Below are positions 30,058 to 38,371 of a stretch of DNA of 40,625 nt, one piece after another. The DNA is taken from contig CAMXKT010000007.1 of the NCBI GenBank assembly GCA_947244595.1, positions 1 to 40,625 of the forward strand, given 5' to 3'. This DNA is from an uncultured Oscillibacter sp. (GTDB lineage Bacteria; Bacillota; Clostridia; Oscillospirales; Oscillospiraceae). The notes under the pieces were generated by a model, which ran no database searches, was not told where the DNA came from, and saw only the letters and a list, made by a program, of their open reading frames with translations. The position numbers and the translations under genes were made by a program. How positions within the stretch are numbered: position 1 is the stretch's first letter; every line of letters begins with the position of its first letter.

Positions 30058-33000
30058 TCAATATTCAATCTCCCCCGTATACACCAGTTTCGCGTCCCCC
30101 GTCAGGGTGACGCCCTCGTCGGTGTAATGGACGATCAGCTCCCCGCCCTTCACCCGGACGGTGACATCCCGGCCCTTCTCGCAAAGGCCGTTGGCAACTG
30201 CCGCCACCACCGCCGCGCAGGCGCCGGTTCCGCAGGCCATGGTTTCCCCGCTGCCCCGCTCCCAGACCCGCATCTTGATGGTGCTGGGATTCACCACCCG
30301 GATGAACTCCGTGTTGATCCGCTCCGGGAAATAGGGCGCGTGCTCGAACCGGGGGCCGATGAAGTCGATATCCACCGCGTCCACCCGGTCGCAGAAGACC
30401 ACGCAGTGGGGGTTGCCCATGTCCACGCAGGTGATGTTGTAGGGCCGTCCGGCAATGCGGACGGGATAGTCCACCACCTGGCTTTCCGCGATGGTGAATT
30501 TCAGCGCCGCCGTGTCCAGAGTGGCCCTTCCCATGTCCACGCTGGCGGAGGTGACTTTCCCGCTGGTGGTGTAGAGGGTCACGGTCCGGACCCCGCTGGC
30601 GGTCTCCACCGTCAGGGTCTCCTTGTCTGTGAGGCCTTTGTCGTGGAGGTACTTCCCCACGCACCGCAGGGCGTTGCCCGCCATTTTTCCCTCGCTGCCG
30701 TCGGAGTTGAACATCCTCATTTTCGCGTCGGCGATTTCGGACCGCTCCATCAGGATGATGCCGTCGGCCCCCACGCCGAAGTGGCGGCGGCAGAAGGGCA
30801 CGCAGAGGGATTCCGGGCAGGTGATGCGGCCGTCGAAGTTCTCCAGGAAGATGTAGTCGTTGCCGCAGGTCTGCATCTTGGTAAAGACCAATTTCTCCCG
30901 ATGGTCCCGGAGGTGGCAGATGTCCACCAGCTCCGTGTTCCCCTGGTTGTACCGGGACTCCAGGATGTCCGCCAGGGCCCCGGCGGTGTCCAGGGAGGTG
31001 AGGCAGGGAATGCCCAGCTGGACGCAGCGGTGGTTCAATCGGATGAAGTCCCGGATGTACTCCGGCTCCGTGGACCCGGTGAGGATGACGTAGTCGATCT
31101 TCCCGTCCTCCAGCAGCTGGAAGACCCGGTTGTCCTGGCCCAGCTTCCCCACGATCTCCACGCCGGTGCCCAGGCGCTCAATTTCATGGGCGGTGCCGTC
31201 CGTCGCGTAGAGCTTGAAGCCCAGCTCGTCCAGCTTCCGGGCGGTGTCCAGAATCTCCGGCTGGTCCCGGCGGTTGACGGAGATGAGCACTCCGCCCTTT
31301 TCCTGCTTCTCCACCTTGTACCCAGCGGAGACCAGGCCCTTGAAGAGGGCCTCCTGCATGTTCTTGCCCAGGCCCAGGACCTCGCCGGTGGACTTCATCT
31401 CCGGGGAGAGGGCGGCGTTGGCGTCGGTGAGCTTCTCGAAGGAGAAGACGGGGACCTTGACGGCGGTGTAGGGGGGCTGCTTGTAGAGCCCGGTGCCGTA
31501 GCCCAGGGATTTCAGAGGCTGTCCCACCATGACCCGCGTGGCCAGGTCCACCATGGGGACTCCGGTGACCTTGGAGATGTAGGGCACCGTCCGGCTGGCC
31601 CGGGGGTTCACCTCGATGACGTAAAGCTCCCCCTGATAGATTAAGTACTGGATGTTGATGAGTCCCTTGGTCCCCAGGGACAGGGCCAGCTTCTCAGAGC
31701 AGTCCACGATTGTCTTGAGCATCCGGTCCCCGATGGAGAAGGGCGGGTAGACGGCGATAGAGTCCCCGGAGTGGACGCCGGTGCGCTCGATGTGCTGCAT
31801 GACGCCGGGGATGAGGACGTCCGCGCCGTCGGAGATCACGTCCACCTCCAGCTCCTTGCCCATGAGGTACTGGTCCACCAGGACGGGGTTTTCCACCTTC
31901 CCGGAGAGGATGACGTTCATGTAGGTCCGGACGTCCGTATCGTTGTGGGCGATGACCATGTTCTGCCCGCCGATGACGTAGGAGGGCCGGAGCAGCACGG
32001 GATAGCCCAGTTCGTTGGCGGCGCTCAGGGCCTCCTCCATGCCCAGGACCCCACGGCCCTGGGGGCGCTTGATGTGGAAGCGCTCCAGCAGCTCGTCGAA
32101 GCGCTCCCGGTCCTCCGCCATGTCGATGGACTCGGCGGAGGTGCCCATGATCCGGATGCCGTGGCTGTCCAGGTACTGGGTCAGCTTGATGGCCGTCTGG
32201 CCGCCGAAGGCCACCACCACGCCCACCGGCTTTTCCACATCGATGATGTGCATCACGTCCTCGGGGTACAGGGGCTCGAAGTACAGCCGGTCGGCGGTGT
32301 CGTAGTCCGTGGAGACGGTCTCCGGGTTGTTGTTGACGATGACCACGTCATAGCCCAGCTCCTTGAGGGTCCAGACGCAGTGGACGGAGGAGTAGTCGAA
32401 CTCAATGCCCTGTCCAATCCGGATGGGCCCGGAGCCCAGGACCATGATGACGGGCCGCCCGGATCGGGGGAAGGCCCGGGACTCGCAGAACTGGTCGAAG
32501 CTGGAGTAGAAATAGGGGGTCTCCGCGTCGAACTCCGCGCCGCAGGTATCCACCATCTTGTAGACGGCGGTCTTGGGCTCCTCCGGGAGGTTTTCCGCCC
32601 CGGAGAGGCGGAGCAGGGTCCCGTCCGGGTAGCCCAGGCGCTTGCCCTCGGCGTAGTGTTCCGCCGTCAAGCCGTCCTGTTCCAGGGCGGCTTCAAAGTC
32701 CGCCATTCCCCGGAGCTTCCAGAGGAACCAGCGATCGATTTTGGTGATGGAGAAAATCTCGTCTACGGACACGCCGGATTTCAGGGCCTCGAAGACGGTG
32801 AAGATCCGCCGGTCGTCCACCCGCCGGAGGCGCTCCCAGATGGGGGCGGGGTCCGTGTTCTTCCGGTTCAGGCTGTCCTGGCCGATCTCCGCCCCCCGGA
32901 CGGCCTTCATCAGGGCCATTTCAAAGCTGGGGGCGATGGACATGACCTCCCCCGTGGCCTTCATCTGGGTGCCTAAGGAGCGGGAGGCGTCGGCGAACTT

Positions 33001-34089
33001 GTCGAAGGGCCACTTAGGCATCTTCACCACGATGTAGTCCAGCGTCGGTTCGAAGCAGGCGCAGGTCTTCCCGGTGATGTCGTTCTTGATCTCGTCCAGG
33101 GTGTACCCCAGGGCGATCTTGGCCGTGATCTTGGCAATGGGGTAGCCCGTGGCCTTGGAGGCCAGGGCGGAGGACCGGCTGACCCGGGGGTTCACCTCGA
33201 TGACAGCGTACTCAAAGCTATCCGGGTTCAACGCCAGCTGGACGTTGCAGCCCCCCACGATCCCTAAATGGGCGATGATGTCCAGGGAGGCGGAGCGGAG
33301 CATCTGGAACTCCCGGTCCGCCAGGGTCTGGGTGGGGGCCACCACGATGGAATCCCCGGTGTGGACCCCCACGGGGTCCAGGTTCTCCATGGAGCAGACG
33401 GCGATGACGTTGCCCACCGCGTCCCGCATGGTCTCGAACTCGATTTCCTTCCAGCCGAAGATGGCCTTCTCGATCAGCACCTGGGTGATGGGAGAGGCGT
33501 CCAAGCCCGTCTGGGCGATGATGCGGAGCTCAGCCTCGTTGGCGGCGGCGCCGCCTCCCGCGCCTCCCAGGGTGAAGGCCGGGCGGACGATGACGGGGTA
33601 GCCGATTCTGGCGGCCACTTCCAGGGCCCCGTCGATGGTCTCGGCGATGTCGGAGGCGATGACCGGCTGGCCGATCTCCGCCATGGCCTCTTTGAAGAGC
33701 TCCCGGTCCTCAGCCCGGGAGATGGCGGCGGCGTCGGTGCCCAGGAGCCGGACGCCCTGCTCCTGGAGGAAGCCCTCCTTGTCCAACTGCATGGCCAGGG
33801 TCAATCCCGTCTGGCCTCCCAGGCCCGCCAGGATGGAGTCCGGCTTCTCCTTGCGGATAATGCGCTTCATGGTCTCCACGGTCAGGGGCTCCAAGTAGAT
33901 CTCGTCCGCCATGGCCTGGTCCGTCATGATGGTGGCGGGGTTGGAGTTGCACAAGACCACGTCCACCCCGGCTTCTTTCAGCACCCGGCAGGCCTGAGCC
34001 CCGGCGTAGTCGAACTCGGCGGCCTGACCGATGACGATGGGGCCGGAGCCGATGACCAGGACTTTTTTAATGCTTTTGTCCAGGGGCAT
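30058..34089 (-). CDS. carB: Carbamoyl-phosphate synthase large subunit fused to a DapF-like domain
   Basis: A single 1343-residue frame. Residues 1-1065 are a complete CarB: two ATP-grasp halves beginning KKVLVIGSGPIVIGQAAEFDYAG and PVIMVLGSGPIRIGQGIEFDYSS, the oligomerisation region, and the C-terminal allosteric MGS-like domain. It makes carbamoyl phosphate with CarA for pyrimidines and arginine. Residues about 1066-1343 (278, a full family length) are diaminopimelate epimerase-like, opening KLVFTKMQTCGNDYIFLENFDG. Kept residues include NSDGS, GNPHC, NTEFI, WERGSGET and the second catalytic cysteine C1286 in ACGTGAC. The first catalytic cysteine position in the CGNG motif is Ala1137 (KMAGNALRC). 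No stop or frameshift lies between the parts. It shares one base with carA (TAATG). Confidence 0.93.
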   Translation of the reverse strand: MPLDKSIKKVLVIGSGPIVIGQAAEFDYAGAQACRVLKEAGVDVVLCNSNPATIMTDQAMADEIYLEPLTVETMKRIIRKEKPDSILAGLGGQTGLTLAMQLDKEGFLQEQGVRLLGTDAAAISRAEDRELFKEAMAEIGQPVIASDIAETIDGALEVAARIGYPVIVRPAFTLGGAGGGAAANEAELRIIAQTGLDASPITQVLIEKAIFGWKEIEFETMRDAVGNVIAVCSMENLDPVGVHTGDSIVVAPTQTLADREFQMLRSASLDIIAHLGIVGGCNVQLALNPDSFEYAVIEVNPRVSRSSALASKATGYPIAKITAKIALGYTLDEIKNDITGKTCACFEPTLDYIVVKMPKWPFDKFADASRSLGTQMKATGEVMSIAPSFEMALMKAVRGAEIGQDSLNRKNTDPAPIWERLRRVDDRRIFTVFEALKSGVSVDEIFSITKIDRWFLWKLRGMADFEAALEQDGLTAEHYAEGKRLGYPDGTLLRLSGAENLPEEPKTAVYKMVDTCGAEFDAETPYFYSSFDQFCESRAFPRSGRPVIMVLGSGPIRIGQGIEFDYSSVHCVWTLKELGYDVVIVNNNPETVSTDYDTADRLYFEPLYPEDVMHIIDVEKPVGVVVAFGGQTAIKLTQYLDSHGIRIMGTSAESIDMAEDRERFDELLERFHIKRPQGRGVLGMEEALSAANELGYPVLLRPSYVIGGQNMVIAHNDTDVRTYMNVILSGKVENPVLVDQYLMGKELEVDVISDGADVLIPGVMQHIERTGVHSGDSIAVYPPFSIGDRMLKTIVDCSEKLALSLGTKGLINIQYLIYQGELYVIEVNPRASRTVPYISKVTGVPMVDLATRVMVGQPLKSLGYGTGLYKQPPYTAVKVPVFSFEKLTDANAALSPEMKSTGEVLGLGKNMQEALFKGLVSAGYKVEKQEKGGVLISVNRRDQPEILDTARKLDELGFKLYATDGTAHEIERLGTGVEIVGKLGQDNRVFQLLEDGKIDYVILTGSTEPEYIRDFIRLNHRCVQLGIPCLTSLDTAGALADILESRYNQGNTELVDICHLRDHREKLVFTKMQTCGNDYIFLENFDGRITCPESLCVPFCRRHFGVGADGIILMERSEIADAKMRMFNSDGSEGKMAGNALRCVGKYLHDKGLTDKETLTVETASGVRTVTLYTTSGKVTSASVDMGRATLDTAALKFTIAESQVVDYPVRIAGRPYNITCVDMGNPHCVVFCDRVDAVDIDFIGPRFEHAPYFPERINTEFIRVVNPSTIKMRVWERGSGETMACGTGACAAVVAAVANGLCEKGRDVTVRVKGGELIVHYTDEGVTLTGDAKLVYTGEIEY

Positions 34090-35327: not shown

Positions 35328-36746
35328 TCACGTGTTGTCCCGGCTGATGGGCTCCCGCACCAGCAGGCGGCGGAGGGCTTTGCCGTTGAAGGGGATCAGG
35401 GGATAGAGATAGCCCCGGCCCACCAGGGGTTTGGTGGTGGCCAGCAGCACCAGGATGCCCAGGAGCCCCAGGCCGTAGCCCCACACGTCGAAGGCGGCGG
35501 TGATCAGCAGCAGCACCACCCGGAGGAGCTTGAAGGCGTAGCCCATCTCATAGCTGGGCTGGGCGAAGCTGGCCACGGACACAAAGGCCATATAGACCAG
35601 CACCTCCGGCCCCAGCCAGCCCGCCTGGACGGCGAAGTCGCCCAGGATCAGGGCTCCCAGCATGGAGAAGGAGTTGGACAGGGAATCCGGTGTGTTCAGG
35701 GACGCCAGCTTCAAAACGTCCACCAGGAACTCCACCACAAGAAGCTGCCAGAGGAGCCCCAGGGCCGCGGGCTCCGGGGAGGACAGGAACTCCAGCGCCT
35801 CCGGCAGGCGGCCCGACTCCTTCACCAGCAGATACCACGTGGGCGTGATGAGCAGGGAGATGAGAAAAACCACGATCCGCAGAAGCCGCAGGTAGGTCCC
35901 CACCAGCGGCGGGAAGTAAAACTCATTGGCCTCCTGGGTGAAGTCGAAAAAGGTGGTGGGCAGGATCATCACCGAGGGGGAGTTGTCCACCATCAAAATG
36001 ACGTTCCCCTCCATGATGCTGGCGGCGGCGCTGTCGGGCCGCTCCGTGTAGCGGACCTTGGGAAAGGGATTGTACCACTGCTTGGGGCGGATGGCCTCCG
36101 CCACGCTCTCCTGGGCCATGGAGAGAGAGTTCATGTCGATGCCGTTCAGCTTCTCCCGGATAGAGGCCAGCAGGGCCGGGTCCGCCTTGTCGTCCAGATA
36201 GCAGAGTACCGCGTCGGTGTGGGAGCGCTTCCCCACCTTCAGCCCCTCCATGGTGAGGTGGGGGTCCCGGATGCGGCGGCGAAGCAGGGCCATGTTGGGC
36301 ACCACCGCCTCCACAAAGCCGTCGTGGGAGCCCCGGAGGACCTTGCCGTCCGGGGGCTCCTCCACGCTGCGGCCGGGGTAGTTTTTCGCGTCAATCTGGG
36401 CGGCGCCGGAGAGGCCTTCCACCAGCAGAAGGGTCTTTCCCATGAGGACGGAGGTGGTGAGCTGGTCCGTGTCGTCGGCCACGTCCACCTCGGAAAAGGT
36501 GATGAAGCGGTCCGCGAAGTCCTGCATGTCCCTGAGGCCCTCCAGGGCGTTTGCTGGCTGGGAGAGCCAGAAGGCCCCCATACGCTCCAGGGTTTCGTCC
36601 TTGCCGTAGCCGTCCACCACCCAGAGCCGGGCCCTGCGGCCGCCGATGATATAATCCCGGCTCACCATGTCCACGCTCCGGCCCACCCCCAGGGCCTCGT
36701 CGAAGAGCCGGACGTTTTCCATGTAATGGTCAGATAATGTTGCCAT
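35328..36746 (-). CDS. GerA/SpoVAF-family spore germination protein
   Basis: A 472-residue inner-membrane protein of the GerA family, nearest in character to SpoVAF. The soluble N-terminal half (about 1-270) includes DVADDTDQLTTSVLMGKTLLLVEG and the family's PDSAAASIMEGNVILMVDNSPSVMILPTTFFDF transition. About five or six hydrophobic segments fill 280-450. Such proteins act in the spore inner membrane during germination, in nutrient receptor or dipicolinic acid channel complexes. AGGAGG is 5 nt before the ATG at 36744-36746; a GTG two codons earlier overlaps that site. The usual spoVA genes are not adjacent, so it stands alone here. Confidence 0.88.
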   Translation of the reverse strand: MATLSDHYMENVRLFDEALGVGRSVDMVSRDYIIGGRRARLWVVDGYGKDETLERMGAFWLSQPANALEGLRDMQDFADRFITFSEVDVADDTDQLTTSVLMGKTLLLVEGLSGAAQIDAKNYPGRSVEEPPDGKVLRGSHDGFVEAVVPNMALLRRRIRDPHLTMEGLKVGKRSHTDAVLCYLDDKADPALLASIREKLNGIDMNSLSMAQESVAEAIRPKQWYNPFPKVRYTERPDSAAASIMEGNVILMVDNSPSVMILPTTFFDFTQEANEFYFPPLVGTYLRLLRIVVFLISLLITPTWYLLVKESGRLPEALEFLSSPEPAALGLLWQLLVVEFLVDVLKLASLNTPDSLSNSFSMLGALILGDFAVQAGWLGPEVLVYMAFVSVASFAQPSYEMGYAFKLLRVVLLLITAAFDVWGYGLGLLGILVLLATTKPLVGRGYLYPLIPFNGKALRRLLVREPISRDNT

Positions 36747-36820
36747 GCGCACCTCCTGAAATGGAGGTAGTATGCCCGGGAGGAGGGAGGGCTATCCATG
36801 AACAGGCGGCGGGGAGAAAT

Positions 36821-36849
36821 TTGACAAATTTCCCGCCCAATGATAAAAT
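36821..36849 (+). promoter_or_regulatory. Promoter of the small-peptide mRNA
   Basis: TTGACA (36821-36826), 17-bp spacer, TAAAAT (36844-36849) with an extended -10 TGA at 36841-36843. Predicted start near 36856. Confidence 0.85.
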
Positions 36850-36852
36850 ATT

Positions 36853-36928
36853 CCCGCCCCCCAAAAGGGGCGGGAACGCTACGCAGCGGACAGGCGGCTG
36901 GCCACGTCCTCCGAAAGGAGGTGAGGCC
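36853..36928 (+). promoter_or_regulatory. Structured leader hiding the Shine-Dalgarno of the small peptide
   Basis: Three hairpins in a row: CCCGCCCC/GGGGCGGG (36853-36860 with 36867-36874), CGCT/AGCG (36877-36888), and CCTCC-GAAA-GGAGG (36908-36921). The last contains the Shine-Dalgarno AGGAGG and is extended by GGCC/GGCC (36900-36903 with 36925-36928). Folding would block ribosome entry. Confidence 0.75.
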
Positions 36929-36930
36929 GT

Positions 36931-37008
36931 ATGCGGATTACGTTACATATCGGACGGTTTACCGTGACGATTGTCGTGAAATGCAGAAACCGCCACTCTG
37001 GCCAGTGA
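36931..37008 (+). CDS. 25-residue peptide, candidate type I toxin
   Basis: The frame encodes 25 residues beginning MRITLHIGRFTVTIVVK and ending RNRHSGQ. It has a strong AGGAGG 9 nt upstream, its own promoter and a structured leader. The peptide has an alternating hydrophobic/beta-prone core and a basic tail, unlike the plain single helix of most type I toxins. The stop lies inside a hairpin that may end both this mRNA and an opposing antisense RNA. I have a faint memory of similar short peptides in related Clostridia but cannot name a family. Toxicity is inference from the gene arrangement; a regulatory or leader peptide is the main alternative. Confidence 0.65.
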   Translation: MRITLHIGRFTVTIVVKCRNRHSGQ

Positions 37009-37014
37009 CGGTTT
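36987..37014. terminator. Hairpin at the 3' end of the small-peptide gene
   Basis: AAACCG-C-CACT (36987-36997) pairs with AGTG-A-CGGTTT (37004-37014) around CTGGCC, with one mismatch. T-rich stretches follow on both strands. It could terminate the leftward antisense RNA and, with the following GGTTTT, the mRNA. Confidence 0.5.
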
Positions 37015-37081
37015 CTTGACGGTTTTCACTGTCGGGTTTACCTAAGCACTAGGGCCAGCCGCCTTGCGCGGCGTTCCCTTT
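36987..37081 (-). ncRNA. Candidate antisense RNA to the small-peptide mRNA
   Basis: A perfect consensus promoter at 37088-37116 would start an RNA near 37081 running leftward. It has a 5-bp hairpin near its 5' end (37058-37062 with 37068-37072) and reaches the hairpin at 36987-37014, giving about 95 nt complementary to the 3' part of the peptide mRNA. RatA and SR4 in Bacillus pair with toxin mRNA 3' ends in the same way. Ends are predicted only. Confidence 0.6.
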
Positions 37082-37087
37082 AGCTGT

Positions 37088-37116
37088 ATTATAGCAGTCG
37101 GAGGGGCCGCTGTCAA
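37088..37116 (-). promoter_or_regulatory. Perfect consensus promoter of the antisense RNA
   Basis: Leftward TTGACA (37116-37111), 17-bp spacer, TATAAT (37093-37088). No protein gene starts to its left in this direction before the germination gene at 36746, which has its own start and Shine-Dalgarno. Confidence 0.85.
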
Positions 37117-37165
37117 GGCGGGCGTCGGCCTCTTGAATCCAGCTTTTAAAAAGGAGAGGATCGTT

Positions 37166-37522
37166 ATGCTGAGACCCAAGGAAATCGTTCAGCTATGGGT
37201 AGACGCCTTTAACGCCGGGGACGCGGAGGCTATCTCGGCCCTGTACCATGACGAGGCGGTCAACCACCAGGTGGCCAACGAGCCGGTTTCCGGCAGGGCC
37301 GCTATCCGGGAGATGTTCGCCGAAGAGTTTGCCGCCGCCAAGATGGTCTGCATTGTGGAACACATCTTCGAGGACGGACAGTGGGCGATCCTGGAGTGGC
37401 GGGATCCGCTGGGCCTGCGGGGCTGCGGGTTTTTCCAGGTGATCAATGAAAAAATTCTGTTCCAGCGGGGCTATTGGGACAAGCTCTCCTTCCTGAGACA
37501 GCACGGTCTCCCCATCGAGTGA
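37166..37522 (+). CDS. NTF2/SnoaL-like protein
   Basis: A 118-residue single-domain protein with the NTF2-like (SnoaL/ketosteroid isomerase-like) pattern: EIVQLWVDAFNAGDAEAISALYHDEAVNHQVANEPVSG, then a beta-rich half ending QRGYWDKLSFLRQHGLP. Members range from isomerases and dehydratases to ligand-binding proteins; no substrate can be given. The frame extends 34 codons upstream, but AAGGAG is 9 nt before the ATG at 37166. It faces the BrkB-like gene convergently with 9 nt between stops. Confidence 0.85.
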   Translation: MLRPKEIVQLWVDAFNAGDAEAISALYHDEAVNHQVANEPVSGRAAIREMFAEEFAAAKMVCIVEHIFEDGQWAILEWRDPLGLRGCGFFQVINEKILFQRGYWDKLSFLRQHGLPIE

Positions 37523-37531
37523 CGGACGCCC

Positions 37532-38371
37532 TCACGTCCCCTGCTCCTTCCGCAGGGCCACCAGCGTTCCGTTGAGCTCCGCTCCCAGGATCAGCACGTT
37601 TGCGGACATGTAGAGCCAGATCATCAGCACCACCACCGCGCCGATGGACCCGTACAGCAGGGAGTAGTGGGCGAAGTTGTCCACGTACATGGCGTACAGC
37701 CAGCTGACTCCCATCCAGGCCGCCAGAGCCGCCAGGGTCCCGGGCCACAGGTCCCGCCAGGGTCTCCGGCCGTCTTGGGCCAGAGCGTAGAGAAAGAACA
37801 GGGCGAAGTAGCCCACCACCGCCGCCGCCGGGAAGCGCATCCGGGCCCAGAGCTCCGCCAGGAAGAGGGGCAGGCGGAAGTTTCCCACGGCGTAGCCCAG
37901 CAGCCGGTCGCCGATGGTCATGAGGGCCAGCGTCAGGGCGATGGAGGAGATCAGCACCACGGTGTAGAGCAGGGTTTTCAGCCGGTGGATCACGGCCCGC
38001 TTCGGGGGGCCCAGGCGGTAGGCCGTCCGGACGGAGACCATCAGGGCGTTGGTGGCCCGCATGGGGAACCAGATGGAGAAGAACAGGCCGAAGACCATCA
38101 GCTTGGGGCTGGGGTTCCGGCCCACGTGGAGCAGGTAGGTCCGGATGATATCCACCACGTCTCGGGGCAGGAACTCCCCCAAGGCCAGCAGGATCGCGGT
38201 GACGTTCAGGTTCAGCAGGCCCAGGAGGGCGCTGATGAAGATCAGGAAGGGGAAGATCATGAACAGCAGGTAGAAGGCCAGGGCGGCGCTCTGTACCCCC
38301 ACGTTGTGGCGGAAGTAACGCTGGATTAAGAGATAGAGCCCCCTGGGCAGCTTGCGGGTCAGGCGTATCAC
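37532..38371 (-). CDS. YihY/BrkB-family membrane protein
   Basis: A 279-residue membrane protein with about six hydrophobic segments and the family's N-terminal QSAALAFYLLFMIFPFLIFISALLGLL. The GSIGAVVVLMIWLYMSANVLILGAELNGTL segment near the C-terminus is also typical. The family was once called ribonuclease BN in error; its members are now treated as transporters or envelope proteins of unclear role. The start is a GTG at 38369-38371, 7 nt after the stop of the ArsC-like gene, so the pair is probably co-transcribed. Confidence 0.92.
   Translation of the reverse strand: MIRLTRKLPRGLYLLIQRYFRHNVGVQSAALAFYLLFMIFPFLIFISALLGLLNLNVTAILLALGEFLPRDVVDIIRTYLLHVGRNPSPKLMVFGLFFSIWFPMRATNALMVSVRTAYRLGPPKRAVIHRLKTLLYTVVLISSIALTLALMTIGDRLLGYAVGNFRLPLFLAELWARMRFPAAAVVGYFALFFLYALAQDGRRPWRDLWPGTLAALAAWMGVSWLYAMYVDNFAHYSLLYGSIGAVVVLMIWLYMSANVLILGAELNGTLVALRKEQGT

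What the first reader, a model, noticed from the sequence alone, without database searches (positions are those of the whole stretch)
36821..37116. Type I toxin-antitoxin-like locus with a 25-residue peptide and an antisense RNA
Seen: an extended-consensus promoter (36821-36849), three leader hairpins, the last one (CCTCC-GAAA-GGAGG) hiding the Shine-Dalgarno, a 25-codon frame (36931-37008), a hairpin over its stop, and a perfect leftward TTGACA-17-TATAAT promoter (37088-37116) driving RNA back into the 3' end. Known: type I modules such as TxpA/RatA and BsrG/SR4 use structured mRNAs and 3'-overlapping antisense RNAs. Inferred: this is such a module. The peptide (MRITLHIGRFTVTIVVK...) is beta-prone and basic rather than a simple membrane helix, so its mode of action may be new.
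Basis: partly seen in the sequence, partly recalled or inferred. Interest (0 to 1): 0.82.

Follow-up and report, generated by a model that had tools for sequence, protein, structure and literature searches.

The report
Gut-bacterial peptide gene with antisense RNA
A tiny gene for a 25-residue peptide faces a stronger opposing promoter for a short antisense RNA, an arrangement found in many gut Clostridia that looks like an unrecognised toxin-antitoxin family, although nobody has yet shown that the peptide is toxic.

Summary
In detail: promoters, SD hairpin, 25-codon frame and stop hairpin are where stated. The locus belongs to a dispersed family: six full copies and one half copy in the host assembly, 150 distinct copies recovered, from Clostridia as far as titles tell. 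In 93 non-redundant copies the leftward promoter scores 11-12/12 in 85, against 5 on the other strand. The peptide is under purifying selection (pN/pS 0.13; 138 of 138 ATG-to-hairpin distances share one phase). Wobble pairs assign a long 5'-3' stem to the sense mRNA and the stop hairpin to the antisense RNA, as a terminator built into the last codons. Copies with a broken frame (5 of 30) keep the antisense promoter. Best reading: a new type I-like toxin-antitoxin family combining a 3'-overlapping antisense RNA with AapA/hok-like mRNA closure. The peptide is a predicted beta-hairpin, unlike the membrane helices of characterised type I toxins. Transcription and toxicity are untested. No Rfam, Pfam, NCBIfam, PHROG or PADLOC match, and no paper in my searches, describes it.

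The parts
36821..36849 (+). sense promoter, TTGACA-17-TAAAAT with TG; start expected near 36856
   Evidence: 11/12; in 93 non-redundant copies 42 score 11-12/12 against 5 on the other strand
36850..36877 (-). leader hairpin; on the leftward strand a terminator-like site (12-bp stem, ATTTTATC tail) that could stop antisense read-through
   Evidence: leftward terminator-like site in the leader of 22 of 93 copies, shuffled mean 3.2
36872..36903 (+). 5' arm of the long-range stem in the sense mRNA
   Evidence: own arms pair better on average than swapped or shuffled ones, and better on the sense than on the antisense strand in 122 of 141 copies
36908..36921 (+). hairpin CCTCC-GAAA-GGAGG hiding the Shine-Dalgarno sequence
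   Evidence: a hairpin in the 29 nt before the start in 87 of 93 copies, 35 of 93 after shuffling
36931..37008 (+). 25-codon frame, peptide MRITLHIGRFTVTIVVKCRNRHSGQ
   Evidence: pN/pS 0.128 for codons 2-17 in a set found through the stop hairpin
36985..37016 (-). stop hairpin, better paired on the antisense strand; proposed terminator of the antisense RNA, sharing DNA with the last peptide codons
   Evidence: 82 wobble cells on the - strand, 4 on the +; terminator-like leftward in 48 of 93, rightward in 6 of 93; the window's own T-run is weak
37053..37078 (+). 3' arm of the long-range stem, followed by a T-rich stretch
36978..37081 (-). proposed antisense RNA, about 100 nt (ends inferred from promoter and hairpin)
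   Evidence: family median 95 nt, n=80
37088..37116 (-). antisense promoter TTGACA-17-TATAAT with TG
   Evidence: 12/12; 85 of 93 non-redundant copies score 11-12/12

Best explanation
A small type I-like toxin-antitoxin module of a family that I did not find described. A sense promoter makes a roughly 220-nt mRNA for a 25-residue basic peptide. Its Shine-Dalgarno sequence sits in a hairpin and its 5' and 3' ends pair in a long stem, so the full-length mRNA should be translated poorly. A stronger, opposing promoter at the 3' end makes a roughly 95-100-nt RNA that starts opposite the end of that stem and stops at a hairpin embedded in the last codons; it is complementary to the mRNA's 3' part and should drive duplex formation and decay (RNase III inferred from known systems). 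If the antisense RNA runs short, or the mRNA loses its 3' arm, the peptide is made and harms or arrests the cell. Shown from sequence: anatomy, conservation of both promoters, selection on the peptide, covariation and strand assignment. Inferred: transcription, antisense control, 3' processing, toxicity.
For: Both promoters are conserved and the antisense one is stronger by consensus (higher 70, equal 19, lower 4 of 93). The antisense unit is bounded by a conserved promoter and a strand-specific terminator. Peptide selection: pN/pS 0.128 (bootstrap 0.09-0.18) in 20 distinct frames found through the stop hairpin; 138 of 138 ATG-to-hairpin distances in one phase over 7 lengths. The closing stem covaries and fits the sense strand. 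Asymmetric decay: no intact family frame in 5 of 30 hairpin-selected copies, all with the antisense promoter kept; ordinary-length frame without that promoter in 1 of 145 peptide-selected copies. Multi-copy, sometimes tandem, patchy occurrence. Passages of PMC6733600 describe a like layout in AapA3/IsoA3.
Against: No transcript or toxicity data. The peptide does not look like a membrane helix: moment 3.15 at strand angles against 1.26 at the helix angle for residues 2-8; AlphaFold2 on a 30-residue relative gives strands 2-7 and 10-15. In the window copy the T-run after the antisense hairpin is weak (ATTTC) and the scan does not list it; the leftward terminator it lists lies further on, at 36877-36850. 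The sense promoter is strong in only 42 of 93 copies, and a rightward terminator at the 3' arm was seen in only 11 of 93 (shuffled 3.0), so the mRNA's 3' end is uncertain. Stem controls: 461 of 3525 swapped arms paired as well as the own arm; a helix score of 16 was reached by 86 of 93 own, but also by 429 of 558 swapped arms, mean scores 26.2 and 19.9.
Confidence: 0.66

Rival explanations
1. A regulated but non-toxic small peptide (signal, membrane or enzyme modulator, or antimicrobial) whose synthesis is controlled by the same antisense RNA and mRNA folding.
For: The peptide is conserved at the amino-acid level, basic (mean net charge about +5) and a predicted beta-hairpin, unlike characterised type I toxins; no export or processing partner was looked for systematically.
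Against: Double repression (hidden SD, closed mRNA, stronger antisense promoter) and retention of antisense-only remnants are what one expects if the peptide is dangerous; copies in the host lie beside different genes (read by eye) and are patchy among relatives.
Confidence: 0.2
2. A short mobile or MITE-like repeat with inverted ends; promoters and frame are incidental passengers.
For: Multi-copy, some tandem copies, inverted ends, patchy distribution; at the GerA/BrkB-family site the element lies inverted in one relative.
Against: The frame is under purifying selection; the inverted ends prefer sense-strand wobble pairing, so they are selected as RNA; four genomes, the host included, share the same site among 30 loci opened of 56 genomes matched. 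No target duplication was established: the two GerA-linked sites without the element (L240, L241) hold other DNA.
Confidence: 0.08
3. The leftward RNA is the functional product, a trans-acting small RNA, and the sense transcript is its sponge or decoy.
For: The leftward promoter is the most constant part and survives in remnants.
Against: Does not explain selection on the codons, the start-proximal hairpin in 87 of 93 copies or the sense-strand stem. The middle of the leftward RNA varies between copies, unlike a shared seed for common targets.
Confidence: 0.06

Closest known systems
TxpA/RatA and BsrG/SR4
   Same: Convergent genes, antisense RNA overlapping the 3' end of a small-peptide mRNA.
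   Different: The known toxins are longer membrane-helix peptides (recalled); three peptides of this family matched nothing in Pfam, NCBIfam, PHROGs or PADLOC. Here the mRNA also closes on itself by a 5'-3' stem.
AapA/IsoA of Epsilonproteobacteria and hok/Sok
   Same: 5'-3' long-distance pairing of the mRNA, SD-hiding hairpins, antisense RNA (80 nt for IsoA3), 30-residue toxin, several copies per genome (passages of PMC6733600 and PMC8309996).
   Different: AapA1 has an amphipathic membrane helix by NMR; here a beta-hairpin is predicted. In the full AapA3 mRNA the 3' end itself hides the SD; here the predicted fold hides the SD locally and the long stem closes the base. Direct sequence comparison not made.
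Clostridioides difficile type I modules (CD2517.1-RCd8, CD2907.1-RCd9, CD0956.2-RCd10 and others)
   Same: Clostridia, convergent overlapping toxin and antisense genes, several copies per genome (PMC6563280 section 2).
   Different: Those toxins have about 34-53 residues; their homologues carry a hydrophobic N-terminal and a lysine-rich C-terminal part, several in prophages. This peptide mostly has 25 residues (110 of 150; 22-34 in 143 of 150) and no such helix is predicted.
Fst/Ldr superfamily
   Same: Short peptide, basic C-terminus.
   Different: The Fst/Ldr PXXXGC motif named in PMC8309996 is absent from the family consensus MRITLHIGxFTVTIIVKxRNRHSAK.

Membership tests
type I toxin-antitoxin (general) | small protein-coding mRNA | tested here: met
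   25-codon frame under purifying selection; ATG-to-hairpin length changes only in threes; translation itself not seen
type I toxin-antitoxin (general) | antisense RNA gene on the opposite strand, complementary to the mRNA | tested here: inconclusive
   conserved promoter and strand-specific terminator; the transcript itself was not seen
type I toxin-antitoxin (general) | peptide is toxic when expressed alone | not testable with these tools
   needs expression in a laboratory strain
type I toxin-antitoxin (general) | antisense RNA neutralises the toxin mRNA | not testable with these tools
   needs co-expression and RNA decay assays; asymmetric loss is only indirect
type I toxin-antitoxin (general) | translation controlled by mRNA folding (hidden SD) | tested here: inconclusive
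   hairpin before the start in 87 of 93 copies (shuffled 35) and a covarying 5'-3' stem; structure by sequence only, translation not measured
membrane-helix type I toxins (TxpA/BsrG, AapA, Fst/Ldr) | hydrophobic membrane-spanning alpha-helix | tested here: not met
   by prediction only: beta-type hydrophobic moment; strands 2-7 and 10-15, mean pLDDT 94 and 87 in the first two blocks of ten
Fst/Ldr | PXXXGC motif | tested here: not met
   absent from the consensus of 50 peptides; motif as given in PMC8309996
TxpA/RatA-type layout | antisense RNA overlaps the 3' end of the mRNA | tested here: met
   by inferred ends: antisense RNA, median 95 nt (n=80), covers 3' arm, linker and last codons
AapA/IsoA or hok/Sok-type layout | 5'-3' long-distance pairing of the toxin mRNA | tested here: met
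   by folding and covariation
AapA/IsoA | sequence homology of the peptide | not tested
   no AapA sequence was fetched or compared

The most novel reading that the evidence does not exclude
A large, unrecognised type I-like toxin-antitoxin family of gut Oscillospiraceae and Lachnospiraceae whose effector is a beta-hairpin peptide (RITLHIG-x-FTVTIIVK core, basic tail) that acts on something other than the membrane, or inserts as strands, and whose last codons double as the terminator of its own antisense RNA.
Probability: 0.45. Interest if true: 0.78.

Novelty: new variant of a known kind. Interest (0 to 1): 0.64.

Why it matters
Type I modules are hard to find by sequence, and the 2019 review read here says knowledge in Clostridia was restricted to experimentally validated modules of C. 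difficile (PMC6563280 section 2). This family occurs in many gut commensals, often in several copies, and matched none of the family libraries searched. If the peptide is toxic it would be a type I toxin without a membrane helix, with a new target or mode. The alignments give ready sites for test: two promoters, one start codon, two hairpins, one long stem.

Tried and rejected
Chance: rejected; the layout recurs with controls far below it. Known RNA family: no Rfam match at gathering score in the window or in the three loci L101, L076 and L169; in 36800-37130 two matches at E up to 5, both far under their gathering scores. Known peptide family: three peptides tried, none matched; the only solved-structure hit at E up to 10 is an IF-2 chain at E 0.11 over 12 residues, taken as chance. 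Phage origin: no match among phage records at E 1e-5; 16 IMG/VR stretches carry the pattern; of two looked at (L181, L184) L181 has an integrase nearby; not pursued. Plasmid collection: one record, Vescimonas fastidiosa, 4 places; the one opened lies where the (incomplete) gene table lists no gene. Mobility: no clean empty site; the GerA/BrkB-family spot holds different DNA in relatives. Literature: six peptide words not found in full texts; word searches listed no paper that I could see describes this family; I judged most entries by title and start of abstract; the library lacks most subscription papers and supplements were not searched. Weak covariance-model hits, many covering only the positions from about 66 on, were treated as chance. 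pN/pS is biased for codons 1-8, 10, 12 and 13 because the search pattern fixed them; one search repeats it on frames found through the hairpin, kept if an ATG stands 56 nt before it.

Full report
What is there. The window stretch 36821-37116 lies between a GerA-family gene (35328-36752, -) and a SnoaL-like gene (37166-37522, +), followed by a BrkB-family (YihY-like) gene (37532-38371, -). Rightward it has an 11/12 promoter, a hairpin covering the Shine-Dalgarno sequence and a 25-codon frame; leftward a 12/12 promoter faces it. The predicted sense transcript folds with z -5.6; its 5' part (36872-36903) pairs with its 3' part (37053-37078). The opposite strand folds with z -6.9.

It is a family. 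In the host assembly (73% complete) the DNA query and a covariance model find six full copies, the window copy among them, one half copy on contig C3 and a weak remnant on C12. By DNA similarity 11 of 60 genomes, the host included, carry it. IMG/VR gave 16 stretches. With covariance model R1, 10 of 245 genomes of the order have a full-length match of at least 50 bits (my count; 41 of 245 at E 0.001, the rest weak), and 5 of 398 genomes of the phylum match at E 1e-6, the host included in each. The family is widespread but patchy. Tandem copies 276-439 nt apart occur in L040, L050, L068, L076, L096, L138 and L169.

Both promoters are conserved. 168 pattern matches in 163 loci gave 150 distinct copies after repeats of the same 180-nt neighbourhood were dropped: 5 from the host, 18 from relatives, 114 from genome contigs, 13 from viral contigs. 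The leftward promoter scores 11-12/12 in 135 of the 145 with enough flank, against 5 of 145 on the other strand of the same stretch and 0 of 375 flank stretches; the -10 end lies a median 150 nt after the ATG. The rightward promoter scores 11-12/12 in 61 of 144 (other strand 9; flanks 0 of 375). After reduction to 93 non-redundant copies (of 139 with full flanks) the counts are 85 and 42, each against 5 on the other strand, and the leftward score is higher in 70, equal in 19 and lower in 4.

The peptide is real by selection. Among 20 distinct frames found through the stop hairpin (kept if an ATG stands 56 nt before it), codons 2-17 have pN/pS 0.128 (bootstrap 0.09-0.18), and codons 18-25 have 0.64 with low pS, as expected where the codons also form an RNA hairpin. 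Of the 150 copies, the 138 with a recognisable hairpin all keep the same reading phase between ATG and hairpin over seven different lengths. A variant starting MPITLTFHI, two codons longer, was found by DNA similarity, not by the pattern. Consensus of 50 peptides: MRITLHIGxFTVTIIVKxRNRHSAK; M1, R2, I3, T4, H6, I7, G8 and T13 are invariant there, but the search pattern fixed these; T11, I14, V16 and K17 were not fixed by it and are constant or nearly so.

Which strand owns which structure. Perfect pairs fold equally on either strand, so wobble pairs tell them apart. For the long stem the sense strand pairs better in 122 of 141 copies and worse in 18; in 93 non-redundant copies 78 better, 14 worse, 1 tie. 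Own arms average -56.2 kcal/mol, swapped arms -44.6, shuffled -35.3; 461 of 3525 swaps were at least as good as the own arm. In a second test the best helix scores 26.2 for own, 19.9 for swapped and 13.9 for shuffled arms; 86 of 93 own, 429 of 558 swapped and 18 of 93 shuffled reach 16. The first twelve stem positions each show at least four standard pair types, counted from each copy's own inner end and so not strictly homologous. For the stop hairpin it is the reverse: in 67 aligned copies 82 cells are wobble pairs only on the antisense strand and 4 only on the sense strand, 67 of the 82 at one invariant position. T-runs of at least 4 follow the hairpin leftward in 74 of 125 copies and rightward in 13; terminator-like sites are found leftward in 48 of 93 (shuffled 3.8) and rightward in 6 (1.4). 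So the leftward RNA is a bounded unit of about 95 nt (5-95%: 89-109, n=80), and the peptide's last codons encode its terminator. In the window copy this T-run is weak, and the scan lists instead a leftward terminator in the leader (36877-36850), a feature also seen in 22 of 93 copies; the window's antisense RNA may therefore be partly longer. The sense mRNA's own 3' end is less clear: a rightward terminator-like site at the 3' arm in 11 of 93 (shuffled 3.0), though the stretch after the arm is T-rich.

Decay is one-sided. A hairpin pattern gave 34 hits in 10 of 38 genomes of the genus, host included (reversed-pattern control 0); 4 are second-strand readings, leaving 30 copies. Of these, 5 have no intact family frame (L189 and L195 shifted; L192, L194 and L205 without the first half), and all 30 keep a leftward promoter of 11-12/12. 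Of 145 copies found through the peptide, 7 lack a leftward promoter of at least 10/12, and only one of these (L034) has a frame of ordinary length; the others are fused, read through, interrupted or truncated. Losing the peptide while keeping the antisense promoter is tolerated; the reverse is rare. This fits a harmful peptide but does not prove it; each sample was selected on the part that it then shows as kept or nearly so, and only the cross-comparison is informative.

The peptide. Residues 2-8 have hydrophobic moment 3.15 at strand angles and 1.26 at the helix angle, and the mean net charge is about +5 (59 distinct 25-residue peptides). AlphaFold2 on the 30-residue relative from L101 with 50 sequences gives strands 2-7 and 10-15, mean pLDDT 81.8 (94 and 87 in the first two blocks of ten) and pTM 0.33. 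The window's own 25-residue form was not modelled, and a short peptide may fold differently at a membrane.

Comparison. Passages of PMC6733600 describe AapA3/IsoA3: SD-hiding hairpins, a 5'-3' long-distance pairing that makes the full mRNA inert, activation by 3' trimming, and an antisense RNA of 80 nt without which translation leads to cell death. PMC6563280 section 2 (read in full) describes C. difficile modules with convergent overlapping genes. PMC8309996 passages describe type I toxins with shown or predicted alpha-helices. By anatomy the locus works like a combination of the 3'-overlap and the closed-mRNA designs; as no peptide homology was found it is not filed as a member of any of these named families. 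PMC8040213 (structured RNAs in human microbiomes; passages only) may contain it unnamed among thousands of candidates; its supplements were not searched.

Limits. 

Noticed in passing
window 30058-34089 (-): One 1343-residue frame joins the carbamoyl-phosphate synthase large chain to diaminopimelate epimerase (Pfam hits over both parts).
   Followed up: no
window 36752-37532 and L235-L241: The spot between the GerA-family and BrkB-family genes holds different DNA in relatives, and the element lies there in either orientation.
   Followed up: partly
L181 7200-8402: An integrase gene lies beside a family copy on a viral contig.
   Followed up: no
L040, L050, L068, L076, L096, L138, L169: Tandem copies of the element 276-439 nt apart, with the same or slightly different peptides.
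   Followed up: no
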